Positions 48,003-54,302 of a stretch of 64,000 nucleotides of DNA are shown here, in pieces (positions within the stretch are counted from its first letter, which is position 1; each line of letters opens with the position of its first letter). The notes under the pieces are model-generated. The model was not told the origin of the DNA. It was given only the letters and a program-made list of their open reading frames with translations, and ran no database searches. A program made the translations under genes and the position numbers. The DNA is from Bacteroidales bacterium (GTDB lineage Bacteria > Bacteroidota > Bacteroidia > Bacteroidales > UBA7960). Location of the stretch: positions 1-64,000 of the forward strand of contig SKRM01000004.1 of NCBI GenBank assembly GCA_007118495.1. The letters are read 5' to 3'.

Positions 48003-49091
48003 ATGGAATATTTTGTCACCGGACTGATGTCGGGCACCTCACTTGATGGAACAGATCTGGCTTATTGCAGACTCAGTGAGCATAAGGGTGCATGGGAATA
48101 TGAAATCATCAAGGCTGAGACCCTTCCCTACCAGGACAGCTGGAAAGAAAAACTATCAAAGGCTCCTGAGCTTTCAGGACGGGATCTGATAGCTTTACAC
48201 AACAATTACGGAAAATATCTTGGCCTGACCATAAAAGATTTCCATGCACGTAACGGCCTGATAACCCCCGATTTGGTAGCCAGCCATGGTCATACCGTAT
48301 TTCATCAACCCAGTCAAGGTTATACTTTTCAACTTGGCCATGGTGCATTTATTGCGGCAAACTGCCAATGCACAGTGGTCAGTGATTTCAGGTCAATGGA
48401 TGTGGCAATGGGAGGACAGGGAGCCCCACTTGTACCTCTGGGTGATGAACTTTTATTTTCGGCATATACATATTGTCTGAATCTGGGTGGTTTTGCCAAT
48501 ATTTCAATACCTGGAGCCTCAGGCAGGCTGGCATTTGACATCTGCCCGGTAAACTTTGTAATCAATCAGCTTGTCAGAGAGCATAAAAAAAATACAGGTC
48601 GCAATCTGCACGACTATGATAAGGATGGCTTGCTGGCCAGATCAGGAGAACCTGTCAGTTGCCTGTTAAAGACATTCAATGAACTGAATTATTACAAAAA
48701 GCAGGGTCCCAAAAGCCTGGGTGAAGAATGGGTCAACGAAAATATAAAACCACTCATCACAAAATCACCCCACAAACTTGAAGACTTGCTGCACACCTAT
48801 TACCTTCATGTCGCCCGGCAGATCAGCAACAGTTTGGGCGTGAAACCTAAAGGGGACATGCTTGTTACCGGAGGTGGAGCCCATAATACTTTTCTGATAG
48901 AATGCATTAAACATGCCATCGCCAGTGACGTCACGATAATTATTCCCGATAATGAAACCATTGATTTCAAAGAAGCCCTCATTTTCGCCTTTCTGGGGTT
49001 AAGGTATGTGCGTAAAGAAACCAATTGCAAATCCAGTGTAACGGGAGCCTCAGCCGACTCACCTGGAGGAAGTATCCATTATTTCCATTAG
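48003..49091 (+). CDS. anmK: Anhydro-N-acetylmuramic acid kinase
   Basis: AnmK phosphorylates and opens anhydro-MurNAc to MurNAc-6-phosphate in cell-wall recycling. The N-terminal GLMSGTSLDGTDLAYC is the family signature, followed by SHGHTVFHQP, GGFANIS and the C-terminal LVTGGGAHNTFLIECI. The 362 residues are complete. It is coupled to murF, and the secreted NagZ-like fusion at 10.3 kb could supply its substrate, so recycling seems active in this organism. Confidence 0.94.
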   Translation: MEYFVTGLMSGTSLDGTDLAYCRLSEHKGAWEYEIIKAETLPYQDSWKEKLSKAPELSGRDLIALHNNYGKYLGLTIKDFHARNGLITPDLVASHGHTVFHQPSQGYTFQLGHGAFIAANCQCTVVSDFRSMDVAMGGQGAPLVPLGDELLFSAYTYCLNLGGFANISIPGASGRLAFDICPVNFVINQLVREHKKNTGRNLHDYDKDGLLARSGEPVSCLLKTFNELNYYKKQGPKSLGEEWVNENIKPLITKSPHKLEDLLHTYYLHVARQISNSLGVKPKGDMLVTGGGAHNTFLIECIKHAIASDVTIIIPDNETIDFKEALIFAFLGLRYVRKETNCKSSVTGASADSPGGSIHYFH

Positions 49092-49101
49092 TTTAACGTA
49101 T

Positions 49102-49135
49102 TTGTTTTCTTATCTGAAGGTTTTCATTATTTTTG
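49102..49135 (+). promoter_or_regulatory. Promoter of the symporter/oxidoreductase operon
   Basis: TTG (part of TTTG) at 49102 and TATTTTTG at 49128-49135 are 23 bases apart, at the upper end of the normal range. The -7 element overlaps the tracked TTG start (49133), so ATG 49160 is the likely start. Confidence 0.6.
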
Positions 49136-49159
49136 CCGCTTTACCACATAACTGCTGTC

Positions 49160-50659
49160 ATGAACACATACCTGCTGATCATCGTAGCTTATTTCACTTT
49201 CATTACTTTGATCTCATTTTTAACCAAGAAAGTAGCCAGCCGTTCGGCGGCCGATTTTCTTGTTGCCGGCCGAAACCTGGGCGTGGTTGCCTGCGCTGTG
49301 GTGGTCGCCTCTGAATGGCTGGGGGGCATGAGTACCATTGGGGTTAGCGAAAAAGCATTTCAGACGGGAACCATGCAGCCCATCCTCTACAATATTTCAA
49401 CTGCCATTGGGATGATCATCATAGGGTTTACCGTGGCAAGACATTACCGTGAAAACAATGTGCATACGGTAAGTGAAATGCTTGAGAATCTTTTTGGTAA
49501 GAAAGCCAGGGCCGTTTCAGCTATCGCCTTCTTGTTTGCTTATATAGTACTGGCATTTGTCCAGCTTCAGACTGCTTCAAGCGTCATTGCCGCCATTTTC
49601 GACCTTGGCCGGCTCGAATCTCTTTTTATTGCGGCCATAGTCATTACCGGATATACTTATATCGGGGGTATGCATGCTTTAGCTATTACGGGAATCATCC
49701 ATGTGATAGTTATGTTTTTCGGTATGGGGGTCGCCACCATTATCGGACTGGCTGAAGTAAACGGTTTTGCTGCCCTCCATAGCAGTCTGGTTGAACTCGG
49801 GTCACCTGAAAACCTCTATAACCCATTTAGTGGAGGTCTTGAATATGCATGGAGTCTCATTCTTGGAGGGGTTCTTGGAGGCATGGCAGGACAGGCCAGC
49901 ATTCAACCCATTTTTGCGGCAAGAACCGCTATAACGGCTCGCAAATCAGCCATACTGTCATCATTGATTATCGCGCCTTTTGGAATCATGGTCGCACTAC
50001 TGGGCCTCATGGTCAAAACCGGGCAATTATATGATATAACTGAGGCCGGACCCCTTTTTGATGCAACCATCGGTCCTGCCGGAGCCATTGACCCAAAACT
50101 TGTCCTGCCAACCCTGATGACCACCCCTGAATTTATCCATCCTGTTCTGGGGGGCATTGCACTGGCAGGTATACTGGCTGCCATACTTTCAACAGTTGGT
50201 CCCGTCAATTTCGCAGTTGTAACCATTGCCACAAAGGACATATATCATGGTTTGATCAATAAAACAGCTGTTGACAAGAGCATTATCCGCACAGCCAGAC
50301 AATTGGTCATCCTGGTCAATCTCATCACCATCCCCCTGGCTTTCTATTCAAAGGGAGCCATTCTTGACCTTGCATATATCTCATATGGTATCCGGGCCAT
50401 TGGTGCAATCGTTATTATCCTGGGTATTTACAAGAGGGGATGGATACGTGTTGAAGGTGTAAGAATGGCCTTTATCGGTGGCAGCATAGCCCTGATAGGT
50501 AACATCCTGCTTAACCTGGTAGCACGCCGACTGGGCTGGCTGGGTATGGGAGAGAGCTTTGTTGAAAATACATATGTGGCCATTGGTGCAGCAATCATTT
50601 TCATCATCATTGGCAATATAGTGGGAAAAAAGAAACCCAGGAAACTTCCCAATGAATAA
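49160..50659 (+). CDS. Sodium:solute symporter (SSS family), operon-linked to CoA metabolism
   Basis: This Na+-coupled importer has about 13 membrane helices in 499 residues, counting from ATG 49160. The N-terminal FLVAGRNLGVVACAVVVASEWLGGMSTIG and the core ILAAILSTVGPVNFAVVTIATKDIY match SSS carriers. The tracked TTG start falls inside the promoter. Its stop overlaps the next start by 8 bases, so it belongs with the CoA-transferase and ferredoxin oxidoreductase genes. That context suggests import of an organic acid; the substrate itself is not readable. Confidence 0.88.
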   Translation: MNTYLLIIVAYFTFITLISFLTKKVASRSAADFLVAGRNLGVVACAVVVASEWLGGMSTIGVSEKAFQTGTMQPILYNISTAIGMIIIGFTVARHYRENNVHTVSEMLENLFGKKARAVSAIAFLFAYIVLAFVQLQTASSVIAAIFDLGRLESLFIAAIVITGYTYIGGMHALAITGIIHVIVMFFGMGVATIIGLAEVNGFAALHSSLVELGSPENLYNPFSGGLEYAWSLILGGVLGGMAGQASIQPIFAARTAITARKSAILSSLIIAPFGIMVALLGLMVKTGQLYDITEAGPLFDATIGPAGAIDPKLVLPTLMTTPEFIHPVLGGIALAGILAAILSTVGPVNFAVVTIATKDIYHGLINKTAVDKSIIRTARQLVILVNLITIPLAFYSKGAILDLAYISYGIRAIGAIVIILGIYKRGWIRVEGVRMAFIGGSIALIGNILLNLVARRLGWLGMGESFVENTYVAIGAAIIFIIIGNIVGKKKPRKLPNE

Positions 50660-51929
50660 ACAGCCAGGTAAAAATGTAAAAAATATACTTCCCATGAACA
50701 ACCCAAAACAACCCAGTGCCACAGGGCCACTCGAAGGCTTAAAGGTTCTTGAACTGGCCAGCGTATTGGCCGGTCCGAGCGTGGGCATGTTTTTTGCCGA
50801 ACTGGGTGCCAGTGTGCTGAAAGTTGAAAACGTGACCACCGACGGTGACGTGACACGCAAATGGAAACTACCGGCAGAACCTGCTGCTTCAGATATTTCC
50901 GGATATTTTTCATCTGTAAACTGGGGGAAAGTCTCCTTTGCAGTTAATTTGTGCGAACAAAAGGGTCTTGACCTGATTTACAAGTTGGCCGGGCAATGTG
51001 ATATTGTCCTGGTAAGCTATAAACCAGGTGATGCTGAAAAACTCAGGGTTGACTTTCCTACCCTCAAAAAATATAACCCTGCACTCATATACGCACACAT
51101 TACAGGATACGGTCTGATGAACAAGCGGGCAGGTTTTGATGCCATCATCCAGGCCGAAAGTGGGTTTACGTACATGAACGGTGAGCCAACCGGGCCACCT
51201 GTAAAAATGCCGGTTGCCCTTATGGATGTGCTGGCAGCACATCACCTGAAAGAAGCTATTTTGCTGGCCCTGCTTCATCGTGAACGAACCGGTGAGGGCA
51301 AACACATTGAAGCCTCCCTTTTCAGAGCCGGCCTGGCATCACTTGTCAACCAGGCTACCAATTGGCTTGTGGGAGGCGAAATACCAGAACGTCTCGGGTC
51401 AGACCACCCGAATATTGTTCCTTACGGCACCATATACGCCACCAGTGACGGAAAGGGTATTGTTATGGCTGCAGGTACAGACAAGCAATTCAGAGAGCTT
51501 GTCAATGTGCTTGGCAGACCCGAACTAGGTTCAGATATCAGGTACGCGAAAAACCAGGACAGGGTAAGAAACAAGCAGGAAATCAATCAGATCTTGCAAG
51601 ATCTGATTGGTAGTTATACCCGAGAAGAAATTCTTGCCCTGCTGTCAGAAAAACGCATTCCGGCTGGAGGAGTTTTCAACATGAAAGAAGTATTTGAAGT
51701 GCCGGAATCGGGTGATATGTTGCTTGAGGGCAAATATGATGACGGGCGAACCATCAGGGGAGTAAGATCAATTGCCTTTAGTGCAGCCAATGGATTAACT
51801 GGTAAAGATCTTACCCCTCCACCCCATTATGGAGAACATACCCGGACAATTCTCCGCGATTGGTTACAAATGAAAGATCACGAAATCGATGATTTAATTG
51901 CAAAAGGAGTAGTTTATGCAAAACACTGA
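50652..51929 (+). CDS. Class III CoA-transferase (CaiB/BaiF family)
   Basis: Such enzymes move CoA from an acyl-CoA donor to a carboxylic acid through an aspartyl intermediate. The start motif GLKVLELASVLAGPSVGMFFAELGASVLKVE, the catalytic-aspartate region ALMDVLAAHHLKEAILLALLHRE, and GEGKHIEASLF are present. The 425 residues are complete; an in-frame ATG at 50694 would give 411. It overlaps the symporter upstream (8 bases) and the oxidoreductase alpha gene downstream (14 bases), strong signs of one operon. It probably activates the acid imported by the symporter. Confidence 0.9.
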   Translation: MNKQPGKNVKNILPMNNPKQPSATGPLEGLKVLELASVLAGPSVGMFFAELGASVLKVENVTTDGDVTRKWKLPAEPAASDISGYFSSVNWGKVSFAVNLCEQKGLDLIYKLAGQCDIVLVSYKPGDAEKLRVDFPTLKKYNPALIYAHITGYGLMNKRAGFDAIIQAESGFTYMNGEPTGPPVKMPVALMDVLAAHHLKEAILLALLHRERTGEGKHIEASLFRAGLASLVNQATNWLVGGEIPERLGSDHPNIVPYGTIYATSDGKGIVMAAGTDKQFRELVNVLGRPELGSDIRYAKNQDRVRNKQEINQILQDLIGSYTREEILALLSEKRIPAGGVFNMKEVFEVPESGDMLLEGKYDDGRTIRGVRSIAFSAANGLTGKDLTPPPHYGEHTRTILRDWLQMKDHEIDDLIAKGVVYAKH

Positions 51930-53037
51930 GAAAACCGGCAGAACCCTTATTGACGGTTCAAGGCTCATGATCGAAGCCCTTGCCCGGGCAGGAGCGGATG
52001 CATTTATCGGCTATCCCATCACTCCTGCCAATCTGCTATATTTATATGGTAGCCAGCGAATGGATCTGATGCTCTCAGCTCCGGATGAAATCACTACCCT
52101 GCAATGGATGGCAGGTTTGTCTGCAACGGGAAAACTGCCCGTTACAGCTACCTCATTTCCGGGGTATGCACTGATGCTTGAGTCAGTGAATATGGCCTAC
52201 ATGATGGAATTACCCATGGTCATCATCCTGGTACAACGTCTTGGGCCAGCCACAGGTACTGCCACCTGTGGCGCACAGGGCGACCTGCTGTTGCTCCATG
52301 GAAGTATTTCAGGAGGGCACCCAATGCCTGTGCTGGCAACCAGCGGATTTGAAGACTGTTGGAAACTCGCAGCCAAGGCAGCAGAAGTGGCCGTCAGGCT
52401 CCGCACCCCAGTCGTGCTTCTGACATCGAAAGAAGAAGTGATGACCCAGAAAAGTTTTGACACTTCATTACTTGAAACCATAGAGCGGGTCGACAGGCCC
52501 TGGTACAGCAAAACGTGCTGCAGCTACAAATCATACAAACCAGGCAACCTGGTGCCGGATTTTCTCCCGGTAATCCAGAAAGAACATCAGGTGAGACTGA
52601 ATGCCTCTACCCACGATCAGGAAGGTATATTGCAGCATTCAACCACCGAAGCCATGGAGAACACCCGCCGTCTTGAAGAAAAAGTCATCAACAGGATGAA
52701 TGAATACATCATCTATGAACATGACATACAGGCTGGAGCAGACACCTTGATTGTTGCCTATGGCATCACTGCATCGGCAGCCAGAGACGCAGCTGCCAGC
52801 CTTCGACGTAAAGGGAAACCAACTGATTTGCTGGTTCCGGCCAGCTTGTTGCCCATACCTGCCGAATACCTTGATATACTTGGCCGATACAGCAAAGTTG
52901 TGATTGCTGAAGAAAACATGAACCACCAGCTGGCCACCCTGCTTTATGGTCAGCAAATACCAAAAAACATACAATTAGTTAACAAGTTGGGCAAAATGAT
53001 CAGCCCTGAAGAAATCATCAAGGAGGTATTGCCATGA
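51916..53037 (+). CDS. 2-oxoacid:ferredoxin oxidoreductase, alpha subunit
   Basis: The alpha subunit holds the pyrimidine-binding half of the TPP site of enzymes that catalyse 2-oxoacid + CoA + oxidised ferredoxin to acyl-CoA + CO2 + reduced ferredoxin, and often the reverse. Family motifs are GADAFIGYPITPANLLYL, FPGYALMLESVNMAYMMELP and RLGPATGTAT. The C-terminal domain (about 250-373) with DTLIVAYGITASAARDAA is the usual transketolase-like domain. It overlaps the CoA-transferase by 14 bases and the beta/gamma gene by 4. Confidence 0.87.
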   Translation: MQNTEKTGRTLIDGSRLMIEALARAGADAFIGYPITPANLLYLYGSQRMDLMLSAPDEITTLQWMAGLSATGKLPVTATSFPGYALMLESVNMAYMMELPMVIILVQRLGPATGTATCGAQGDLLLLHGSISGGHPMPVLATSGFEDCWKLAAKAAEVAVRLRTPVVLLTSKEEVMTQKSFDTSLLETIERVDRPWYSKTCCSYKSYKPGNLVPDFLPVIQKEHQVRLNASTHDQEGILQHSTTEAMENTRRLEEKVINRMNEYIIYEHDIQAGADTLIVAYGITASAARDAAASLRRKGKPTDLLVPASLLPIPAEYLDILGRYSKVVIAEENMNHQLATLLYGQQIPKNIQLVNKLGKMISPEEIIKEVLP

Positions 53038-54302
53038 CCGGAAGTATGCTGAAGACCCAATCACTTCCCTATTGCAAGGGATGCGGACACGATCTTATTG
53101 CGGTTCATACCACCAAAGCCCTGGAACGCCTGGGTTATGATCCGCTTGATGTGATCATGGTTACGGATATCGGATGCCATGGTATTATTGACAAATGCCT
53201 GAATACACACACAGTTCATGGTTTGCATGGCAGATCAGCGGCACTTGGTGCAGGTGTTTTTTTCGGGCTGGAGGATACTGACAAAAAAGTAGTGGTCTTT
53301 ATCGGTGATTGTGGAGCTACCATAGGCTTACAGCATATCCTTGAAGCTGCAAGACTTAATCTGGATATATGTGTTGTTGTGCATAACAATATGTTATATG
53401 GGATGACCGGTGGCCAAACCAGCGGACTTACGCCCCAGGGCTTCAGAACAACTACCTCAGGCGAAGGTAACCCGTTAACCGCATATGACATATGTCAGCT
53501 AACCCATACAGCCGGAGCCAGCTATGTAGCCAGAATTGCCGGCATCGGTGATATATCAGCAGACCTTGAAAAAGCATTCAGTCAAAAAGGTTTTTCATTG
53601 ATTGAGATTATGGAAATTTGCCCCAGCTATGGAGTGAAACTTAACCCTGGTCGAAAACTTAAGGATGTGGTTAAAGAATCCGGACGTGAATTTGGCGAAT
53701 GGCTTGGCAACAGACAGGTATTCACACATCAGCAAGGCAAAAAAAATTCTGATCTGCTGCAGCAGCTACAGCTGATCAAAAAACAATTCAGTCACAAGCT
53801 TGACGATCTGCAAACGATTGTCATTAGTGGTTCTGCAGGTGAAGGAGTTCAGCTTTCAGCCAATCTTCTGGCAAAGGCAGCCATGAGTACTGGTCTGGAG
53901 GTGACCCAAAAAGGCAGTTATCCGGTAACTGTGGGTGTGGGATTTTCAACAGCAGAGATTAACCTTTCACCCGACAGCGTCAATTTTCATGGCATCAGCA
54001 TTCCCCGGATTGCGATTATAACATCGACAGACGGCTTAAATCATAACAGAAACAGAATACAACAAATGGGAAGCGGAACCTTGTATATTGATTCAAGCCT
54101 GACACCACCAGAAACCAGCGCCAAGATCATCAGCAGAGATTTTCGATCTATGGGGGCAAGAAATGCATCCATATACGCCATGATGTATTACATTCAGGAA
54201 AGCGGTGTTTTCGACATGGAAGCCATTTACCATATCATGGAAATGGAGGGAAAATCGGGCAAACTTCCGGTTGAAAAAATTCGTGAAGCGCTTAATGACT
54301 GA
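53034..54302 (+). CDS. 2-oxoacid:ferredoxin oxidoreductase, fused beta-gamma subunit
   Basis: Residues 1 to about 240 are a TPP- and [4Fe-4S]-binding beta subunit: YCKGCGHDLIAVH, TDIGCHGI, and LIEIMEICPSYGVKLNP supply four cluster cysteines. NNMLYGMTGGQTSGLTP is the usual KorB segment. The TPP/Mg motif reads IGDCGATIGLQHI, so the usual GDG is GDC. Residues about 260-422 are a gamma domain (IVISGSAGEGVQLSANLLAKAA). The substrate could be 2-oxoglutarate or a branched or aromatic 2-oxoacid. It ends the operon and converges on the next gene. Confidence 0.85.
   Translation: MTGSMLKTQSLPYCKGCGHDLIAVHTTKALERLGYDPLDVIMVTDIGCHGIIDKCLNTHTVHGLHGRSAALGAGVFFGLEDTDKKVVVFIGDCGATIGLQHILEAARLNLDICVVVHNNMLYGMTGGQTSGLTPQGFRTTTSGEGNPLTAYDICQLTHTAGASYVARIAGIGDISADLEKAFSQKGFSLIEIMEICPSYGVKLNPGRKLKDVVKESGREFGEWLGNRQVFTHQQGKKNSDLLQQLQLIKKQFSHKLDDLQTIVISGSAGEGVQLSANLLAKAAMSTGLEVTQKGSYPVTVGVGFSTAEINLSPDSVNFHGISIPRIAIITSTDGLNHNRNRIQQMGSGTLYIDSSLTPPETSAKIISRDFRSMGARNASIYAMMYYIQESGVFDMEAIYHIMEMEGKSGKLPVEKIREALND

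What the first reader, a model, noticed from the sequence alone, without database searches (positions are those of the whole stretch)
49102..54302. Four-gene operon linking Na+ import, CoA transfer and a ferredoxin oxidoreductase
A symporter, a class III CoA-transferase and two oxidoreductase subunits overlap by 8, 14 and 4 bases behind one promoter. Read in order they suggest a route: import a carboxylic acid, activate it to acyl-CoA using another acyl-CoA, then reductively carboxylate it to a 2-oxoacid with reduced ferredoxin. Reductive carboxylation of branched-chain and aromatic acids to make amino acids is established in anaerobic Bacteroidota, but I do not recall this packaging with a dedicated importer and CoA-transferase. 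The opposite direction (2-oxoacid oxidation with CoA recycling) is also possible.
Basis: partly seen in the sequence, partly recalled or inferred. Interest (0 to 1): 0.6.

Follow-up and report, generated by a model that had tools for sequence, protein, structure and literature searches.

The report
Predicted 2-oxoadipate to glutarate operon
Four side-by-side genes in a sediment Bacteroidales bacterium look like a compact ending for anaerobic lysine breakdown, in which a ferredoxin-linked enzyme makes glutaryl-CoA, a second enzyme turns it into glutarate while saving its energy, and a sodium-coupled carrier moves the acid.

Summary
Window 49160-54302 (+) encodes a sodium:solute symporter (SSS), a class III CoA-transferase, and a two-subunit 2-oxoacid:ferredoxin oxidoreductase (alpha; beta fused to gamma). 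Overlaps are 8 (start-codon dependent), 14 and 4 bases. The four-gene order recurs in 29 of 80 related loci, including another phylum.

The branched-chain/aromatic reading is not supported. Relatives of the oxidoreductase sit beside glutaryl-CoA dehydrogenase (GCDH) in 15 genomes, two of them (G063, G261) in the window's own clade. One locus has thiolase, acyl-CoA dehydrogenase, GCDH and all four genes in a row. Genomes tend to have either the CoA-transferase or GCDH (GCDH in 3/10 versus 10/11, p=0.0075). In six loci butyrate kinase plus phosphotransbutyrylase stand in for the CoA-transferase. The window's genome lacks GCDH, has LysA, and carries adjacent lysine-ketoglutarate reductase and saccharopine dehydrogenase genes.

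Best reading: a 2-oxoadipate:ferredoxin oxidoreductase making glutaryl-CoA, and a CoA-transferase releasing glutarate, as an energy-conserving end of lysine breakdown. The symporter almost always occurs with acid-forming/activating enzymes, so it probably moves the acid. Substrate and direction are inferred from genomic context; nothing has been assayed.

The parts
49160..50659 (+). sodium:solute symporter (SSS family), about 499 aa; predicted carrier of the free acid (glutarate) or a closely related compound
   Evidence: Pfam SSF PF00474 117.7 bits; below cut-off for every named NCBIfam SSS member; present in every related locus with a CoA-transferase or kinase+phosphotransacylase and absent from GCDH-only loci
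50652..51929 (+). class III CoA-transferase (CaiB/BaiF), 425 aa or 411 aa from ATG 50694; predicted glutaryl-CoA:acid CoA-transferase
   Evidence: PF02515 318.7 bits; best NCBIfam succinate--glutarate CoA-transferase NF052585 272 bits against cut-off 750; PDB relatives include 9br7 (succinate--hydroxymethylglutarate CoA-transferase), E 4e-64, with the shared Gly-aromatic-Asp stretch at Asp163
51916..53037 (+). 2-oxoacid:ferredoxin oxidoreductase alpha subunit (POR_N + PFOR_II), 373 aa
   Evidence: PF01855 106.5 bits; YPITP motif with Thr36, and Arg108 aligned with the carboxylate-binding Arg344 of Sulfolobus OFOR
53034..54302 (+). 2-oxoacid:ferredoxin oxidoreductase beta subunit (TPP/[4Fe-4S]) fused to gamma (POR) domain, 422 aa
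   Evidence: PF02775 residues 45-192 and PF01558 residues 268-377; Cys14, Cys17, Cys48, Cys196 conserved; TPP motif GDG is GDC here only
48003..49091 (+). anmK (anhydro-N-acetylmuramic acid kinase), upstream neighbour, not part of the module
   Evidence: NF007144 451.6 bits over cut-off 436; module occurs elsewhere without it

Best explanation
The operon is a 2-oxoadipate/glutaryl-CoA/glutarate module, most likely the end of anaerobic lysine breakdown through saccharopine. The alpha and beta-gamma subunits form an oxidoreductase that turns 2-oxoadipate + CoA into glutaryl-CoA + CO2, passing two electrons to ferredoxin (enzyme class shown by sequence; substrate inferred from context). The class III CoA-transferase then moves CoA from glutaryl-CoA to another acid such as acetate or succinate, saving the thioester energy and freeing glutarate (class shown; substrates inferred). 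The SSS carrier moves that acid across the membrane: outward with Na+ when glutarate is an end product, inward where GCDH lets the cell use glutarate (inferred; the least certain step). Upstream, lysine becomes 2-oxoadipate through lysine-ketoglutarate reductase, saccharopine dehydrogenase, an aldehyde dehydrogenase and a transaminase (the first two genes shown in this genome, the last two not assigned).
For: (1) GCDH lies beside the oxidoreductase genes in L064, L070, L076, L077, L081, L084, L091, L094, L101, L105, L108 (divergent), in G136 (divergent; coordinates), on the same strand just upstream in G063 and G261, and upstream of the complete four-gene set in L102. The protein matches solved glutaryl-CoA dehydrogenases at E 3e-139 to 8e-123 against 5e-75 for the next family. 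(2) G063/G261 and the GCDH-bearing L039/L042 fall inside the window's own clade (98% support), so the link is not confined to a distant branch. (3) Fates alternate: among 21 Bacteroidales genomes with the oxidoreductase, GCDH is in 3/10 with the CoA-transferase and 10/11 without (Fisher p=0.0075); in a second, overlapping set, 3 of 23 with the CoA-transferase. (4) GCDH is in 13/21 genomes with the oxidoreductase versus 44/274 without (p=9e-6). (5) The closest curated family of the CoA-transferase is succinate--glutarate CoA-transferase. (6) The window genome has lysine-ketoglutarate reductase and saccharopine dehydrogenase side by side (E 2e-75 and 1e-89 to solved proteins) and LysA, but no GCDH. 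(7) Full-length saccharopine dehydrogenase in 20/21 genomes with the oxidoreductase versus 8/20 background (p=1.7e-4).
Against: No biochemistry. Two residues that Sulfolobus OFOR needs for 2-oxoglutarate, Lys49 beta and Asp468 alpha (PMC5020499), align with Ile51 and Ser231 here, so a second carboxylate would have to be bound differently; the dedicated 2-oxoglutarate enzyme KorAB also lacks both, so this is inconclusive. Lysine-ketoglutarate reductase close to the window's is in only 10/21 genomes with the oxidoreductase (3 more are about 37% identical) and is missing from several with the CoA-transferase. Relatives with kinase+phosphotransbutyrylase have no saccharopine dehydrogenase or GCDH, so their acid may differ. 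Congeners G032 and G146 have the lysine genes but not the operon. The CoA-transferase is well below the curated cut-off (272 of 750 bits). No dedicated aminoadipate-semialdehyde dehydrogenase was found: the only two aldehyde dehydrogenases look like succinate-semialdehyde and P5C dehydrogenases. SSS carriers normally import. Genomes are related, so the Fisher tests overstate independence.
Confidence: 0.52

Rival explanations
1. Same substrates, opposite direction: the symporter imports glutarate, the CoA-transferase activates it, and the oxidoreductase carboxylates glutaryl-CoA with reduced ferredoxin to 2-oxoadipate for 2-aminoadipate or lysine synthesis.
For: The symporter is tied to acid-activating enzymes (36/36 loci) and SSS carriers normally import; OFORs are reversible; saccharopine enzymes make lysine in fungi (knowledge).
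Against: LysA is present in the window genome over cut-off; no enzyme reducing 2-aminoadipate was looked for or seen; GCDH relatives without a carrier or CoA-transferase fit only the oxidative direction.
Confidence: 0.1
2. One reading: branched-chain or aryl acids are imported, activated and carboxylated to make amino acids.
For: Such carboxylation is known in anaerobic Bacteroidota (knowledge); IlvC is absent from the window genome and from 18/21 genomes with the oxidoreductase; kinase/phosphotransbutyrylase relatives use enzymes typical of C4-C5 acids; the beta motif YGMTGGQ resembles that of the VOR-like enzyme in L079.
Against: GCDH adjacency and alternation; separate VOR-like and IOR-like enzymes in the same genome; no transaminase seen in these operons; CoA-transferase nearest to a dicarboxylate family.
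Confidence: 0.13
3. Oxidative end-branch for a different 2-oxoacid (branched-chain, aryl or broad range), as in the Hpd trio of Clostridium scatologenes, with a CoA-transferase replacing phosphotransacylase and kinase.
For: Oxidoreductase + phosphotransacylase + kinase clusters make ATP and reduced ferredoxin from 2-oxoacids (PMC13285125), and relatives here swap the CoA-transferase for exactly those two enzymes.
Against: GCDH links in both main clades, including the window's own, point to glutaryl-CoA.
Confidence: 0.2

Closest known systems
Hpd trio of Clostridium scatologenes (2-oxoacid:ferredoxin oxidoreductase HpdDEFG, phosphotransacylase HpdJ, kinase HpdK; PMC13285125)
   Same: 2-oxoacid oxidised to acyl-CoA with ferredoxin, thioester energy saved, free acid released; the kinase/phosphotransbutyrylase relatives here have the same three functions
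   Different: CoA-transferase instead of phosphotransacylase+kinase in the window; two-gene oxidoreductase with beta-gamma fusion and no ferredoxin subunit; dedicated SSS carrier; predicted substrate 2-oxoadipate
Two-subunit OFORs without ferredoxin domain (Sulfolobus StOFOR, Magnetococcus OGOR 6n2n, KorAB)
   Same: YPITP motif, substrate-binding Arg, single [4Fe-4S] cluster in beta, no ferredoxin domain
   Different: gamma domain fused to the C-terminus of beta rather than to the N-terminus of alpha; Lys49/Asp468 equivalents are Ile/Ser; Lys125 equivalent is Gly
Mitochondrial 2-oxoadipate dehydrogenase (DHTKD1) to glutaryl-CoA to GCDH, with SUGCT handling glutarate
   Same: same predicted reactions and the same partners (GCDH, a succinate-glutarate CoA-transferase relative, lysine via saccharopine)
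   Different: ferredoxin oxidoreductase instead of a lipoamide dehydrogenase complex; transferase predicted to run towards glutarate; window genome lacks GCDH
Bacteroides IOR with aryl-acetate CoA ligase (discussed in PMC13285125)
   Same: oxidoreductase paired with an acid-activating enzyme in Bacteroidales
   Different: AMP-forming ligase, arylpyruvate substrate, no carrier

Membership tests
2-oxoacid:ferredoxin oxidoreductase (OFOR) superfamily | POR_N, TPP_enzyme_C and POR domains | tested here: met
   PF01855, PF02775, PF01558 all over cut-off
2-oxoacid:ferredoxin oxidoreductase (OFOR) superfamily | YPITP Thr and carboxylate-binding Arg in alpha | tested here: met
   Thr36 and Arg108, conserved across relatives; roles from PMC5020499
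2-oxoacid:ferredoxin oxidoreductase (OFOR) superfamily | [4Fe-4S] cysteines in beta | tested here: met
   Cys14, Cys17, Cys48, Cys196 conserved
2-oxoacid:ferredoxin oxidoreductase (OFOR) superfamily | GDG...NN TPP motif | tested here: inconclusive
   NN present; GDG reads GDC in the window only, GDG in all relatives aligned
Named OFOR types (PFOR, VOR, IOR, KGOR models of NCBIfam) | curated score cut-offs | tested here: not met
   alpha best 231 of 482.75 bits; beta best 141.9 of 364
2-oxoadipate:ferredoxin oxidoreductase (predicted activity) | activity on 2-oxoadipate | not testable with these tools
   inferred from GCDH context
Class III CoA-transferase (CaiB/BaiF) | PF02515 over its whole length and catalytic Asp | tested here: met
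   318.7 bits, profile 1-366/366; Asp163 aligned with the Gly-aromatic-Asp stretch of solved members (catalytic role from knowledge)
Succinate--glutarate CoA-transferase (NF052585) | curated cut-off 750 bits | tested here: not met
   272.3 bits, best of seven models
SSS sodium:solute symporters | PF00474 over cut-off | tested here: met
   117.7 bits
SSS sodium:solute symporters | Na+ dependence and substrate | not testable with these tools
   no named subfamily reached its cut-off
Saccharopine route of lysine breakdown (in the window's genome) | lysine-ketoglutarate reductase and saccharopine dehydrogenase | tested here: met
   adjacent genes in L115
Saccharopine route of lysine breakdown (in the window's genome) | aminoadipate-semialdehyde dehydrogenase and glutaryl-CoA dehydrogenase | tested here: not met
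   no GCDH; two aldehyde dehydrogenases, neither clearly of this type

The most novel reading that the evidence does not exclude
A distinct subfamily of ferredoxin oxidoreductases (beta-gamma fusion) is the anaerobic replacement of 2-oxoadipate dehydrogenase. It supports an energy-conserving lysine-to-glutarate fermentation with three interchangeable exits (GCDH, CoA-transferase, kinase+phosphotransacylase), in which a Na+ symporter exports glutarate and so helps to build a sodium gradient.
Probability: 0.3. Interest if true: 0.68.

Novelty: new variant of a known kind. Interest (0 to 1): 0.5.

Why it matters
If right, it gives anaerobes a ferredoxin-linked counterpart of human 2-oxoadipate dehydrogenase (DHTKD1). 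It would place a lysine-to-glutarate branch in Bacteroidales, with related enzymes in Ignavibacteriota, Chloroflexota and others, and give a specific function to a widespread oxidoreductase family that no curated NCBIfam model names. I found one paper in the held library that mentions 2-oxoadipate, ferredoxin oxidoreductase and glutaryl-CoA together, and it does not describe such an enzyme. The alternation of GCDH with the CoA-transferase makes substrate and direction testable.

Tried and rejected
Branched-chain or aryl acids as substrate: weakened by GCDH context and by VOR-like and IOR-like enzymes elsewhere in the genome. IlvC loss as proof of biosynthesis from acids: the association is real (p=0.01) but fits amino-acid fermentation equally and may follow phylogeny. 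Oxalate or formyl-CoA chemistry, suggested by the PDB name 'formyl-CoA transferase': alpha has YPITP, not the YPIRP of oxalate oxidoreductase. GDC in place of GDG as a family trait: rejected, it is private to the window. Active-site residues as substrate proof: inconclusive. NCBIfam could not confirm GCDH, LKR or SDH, so PDB and Pfam matches were used. Several literature searches gave nothing on point; Perlabentimonas gracilis has no held description. Structure prediction was not run, because it would not settle substrate.
Full report
WHAT IS THERE. On the + strand, SSS symporter (ATG 49160-50659), class III CoA-transferase (50652-51929), OFOR alpha (51916-53037) and OFOR beta-gamma (53034-54302) follow one another with overlaps of 8, 14 and 4 bases. 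The first overlap depends on the chosen start of the CoA-transferase. The fourth gene fuses the TPP/[4Fe-4S] beta domain (residues 45-192 match TPP_enzyme_C) to the gamma domain (268-377 match POR). No ferredoxin domain is present. Cluster cysteines 14, 17, 48 and 196, YPITP Thr36 and Arg108 are conserved; Arg108 aligns with the Arg that binds the substrate carboxylate in Sulfolobus OFOR. The genome is a 2.63 Mb, 78-contig assembly, 98% complete. It also has a pyruvate:ferredoxin oxidoreductase, an IOR-like, a VOR-like and a KGOR-like enzyme, so this is its fifth OFOR.

CONSERVATION. A scan of genome contigs with the beta-gamma protein gave 80 loci. All four genes in order occur in 29, and four more show CoA-transferase-alpha-beta-gamma cut by a contig end. 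One four-gene locus is in Fermentibacterota (L089). In the window's order the oxidoreductase is patchy: 21 of 295 genomes have a strong match, and of its three congeners in the sample only one has it. Around it, genes differ between lineages, so the four genes behave as a unit.

THREE PARTNERS OF ONE OXIDOREDUCTASE. (a) CoA-transferase with symporter. (b) Glutaryl-CoA dehydrogenase: divergent neighbour in L064, L070, L076, L077, L081, L084, L091, L094, L101, L105, L108 and in G136 (coordinates), same strand upstream in G063 and G261 (coordinates). In L102 thiolase, acyl-CoA dehydrogenase and GCDH precede the complete four-gene set on the same strand. Identification as GCDH rests on PDB matches (E 3e-139 to the best solved GCDH, 8e-123 to 1sir; next acyl-CoA family 5e-75), not on NCBIfam, whose only glutaryl-CoA dehydrogenase model among the hits is of another type. 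(c) Butyrate kinase and phosphotransbutyrylase: upstream of symporter-alpha-beta-gamma in L071, L074, L078, L100, or convergent just downstream in L075, L099.

ALTERNATION. Among the 21 Bacteroidales genomes, the CoA-transferase lies upstream in 10. GCDH is encoded in 3 of those and in 10 of the 11 others (Fisher p=0.0075). Over all 295 genomes GCDH is in 13/21 with the oxidoreductase and 44/274 without (p=9e-6). In a partly overlapping set of 50 genomes, GCDH is in 3 of 23 with the CoA-transferase and in none of 9 of the kinase or symporter-only type. On the tree both main clades contain CoA-transferase and GCDH types. The window's clade (36 rows, support 98) holds G063/G261 with adjacent GCDH and L039/L042 with GCDH elsewhere and no CoA-transferase nearby. 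The simplest reading is that the oxidoreductase's acyl-CoA product is glutaryl-CoA, disposed of either by GCDH or by the transferase; the 2-oxoacid that gives glutaryl-CoA is 2-oxoadipate (established chemistry). Related genomes are not independent samples, so the p-values are guides only.

LYSINE. Contig C27 of the window's genome has lysine-ketoglutarate reductase followed 19 bases later by saccharopine dehydrogenase (L115 7066-8376 and 8396-9739; E 2e-75 and 1e-89 to solved proteins). Full-length saccharopine dehydrogenases occur in 20/21 genomes with the oxidoreductase against 8/20 without it or GCDH. This family has at least two lineages (34-38% versus 69% identity), and a reductase close to the window's is in only 10/21 (13/21 with distant ones), so the lysine link is firm for the window's genome and many GCDH-bearing relatives but not for every carrier. 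Kinase-type genomes have no saccharopine dehydrogenase; one (G318) has a reductase homologue. LysA is present in the window genome, which argues against lysine synthesis from glutarate. GCDH is absent; its nearest acyl-CoA dehydrogenase sits in what looks like a methylcrotonyl-CoA carboxylase cluster. Glutaryl-CoA therefore most likely leaves as glutarate.

THE CARRIER. Wherever the flank is long enough, the symporter accompanies every CoA-transferase or kinase/phosphotransacylase locus (36/36) and is absent from 24/26 loci without them, including all 8 scored GCDH-only loci. It therefore probably carries the free acid. Outward movement with Na+ would be unusual for this family, and inward movement is natural where GCDH is present (L092, L102). 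This step is the weakest.

COMPARISON. The closest described system is the Hpd trio, in which an OFOR, a phosphotransacylase and a kinase turn p-hydroxyphenylpyruvate into the acid with ATP and reduced ferredoxin, each step reversible (PMC13285125). The kinase-type relatives match that plan; the window replaces two enzymes by one CoA-transferase and adds a carrier. That paper's subunit survey lists separate subunits and fusions of E with F, E with G, or all four; the beta-gamma fusion seen here is not among them. In Sulfolobus OFOR, Lys49 beta and Asp468 alpha are needed for 2-oxoglutarate; here they align with Ile51 and Ser231, which neither supports nor excludes 2-oxoadipate, because KorAB lacks both as well.

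VERDICT. Observation confirmed; first interpretation partly supported. Class assignments are secure; the 2-oxoadipate/glutaryl-CoA substrate pair is my best inference (about 0.6), the oxidative direction within it likely, and the carrier's role open.

Noticed in passing
window 53310-53312: The TPP motif Gly93 of the beta subunit reads Cys (codon TGT; GDC instead of GDG), while all relatives in the alignment have Gly; a private substitution, possibly harmful, or an assembly error.
   Followed up: partly
L125 1753-12830 (G000:C34): Same genome: an apparent cluster of methylcrotonyl-CoA carboxylase, enoyl-CoA hydratase, acyl-CoA dehydrogenase, type 2 isopentenyl-diphosphate isomerase, HMG-CoA reductase and GHMP kinases (read by eye), suggesting leucine breakdown feeding the mevalonate pathway.
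   Followed up: no
L080 1-16308, L090, L096, L079: The oxidoreductase genes sit in a long co-directional run with 3-hydroxyacyl-CoA dehydrogenase, hydantoinase/lactamase-like A and B subunits, RidA, acyl-CoA dehydrogenase, HMG-CoA synthase-like protein, thiolase and methylmalonyl-CoA mutase-like proteins; in L079 and L096 a second, VOR-like oxidoreductase follows.
   Followed up: partly
L057, L043, L099: Oxidoreductase genes in contigs labelled Thermoplasmata archaeon, CSSED10-310 and Acetofilamentum: either horizontal transfer or mis-binned contigs.
   Followed up: no
L071 1256-7294, L074, L078, L100: Butyrate kinase - phosphotransbutyrylase - symporter - alpha - beta-gamma operons in genomes lacking saccharopine dehydrogenase and GCDH; their acid may differ from glutarate.
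   Followed up: partly
L040, L041, L044, L052, L054, L055 upstream of the symporter: A gene of about 980 aa that looks like an FAD-linked oxidase (read by eye) repeatedly precedes the symporter in one sub-clade.
   Followed up: no
G000 (whole genome): IlvC is absent from the window's genome and two congeners but present in congener G032, which lacks the oxidoreductase; suggests branched-chain amino-acid auxotrophy.
   Followed up: partly
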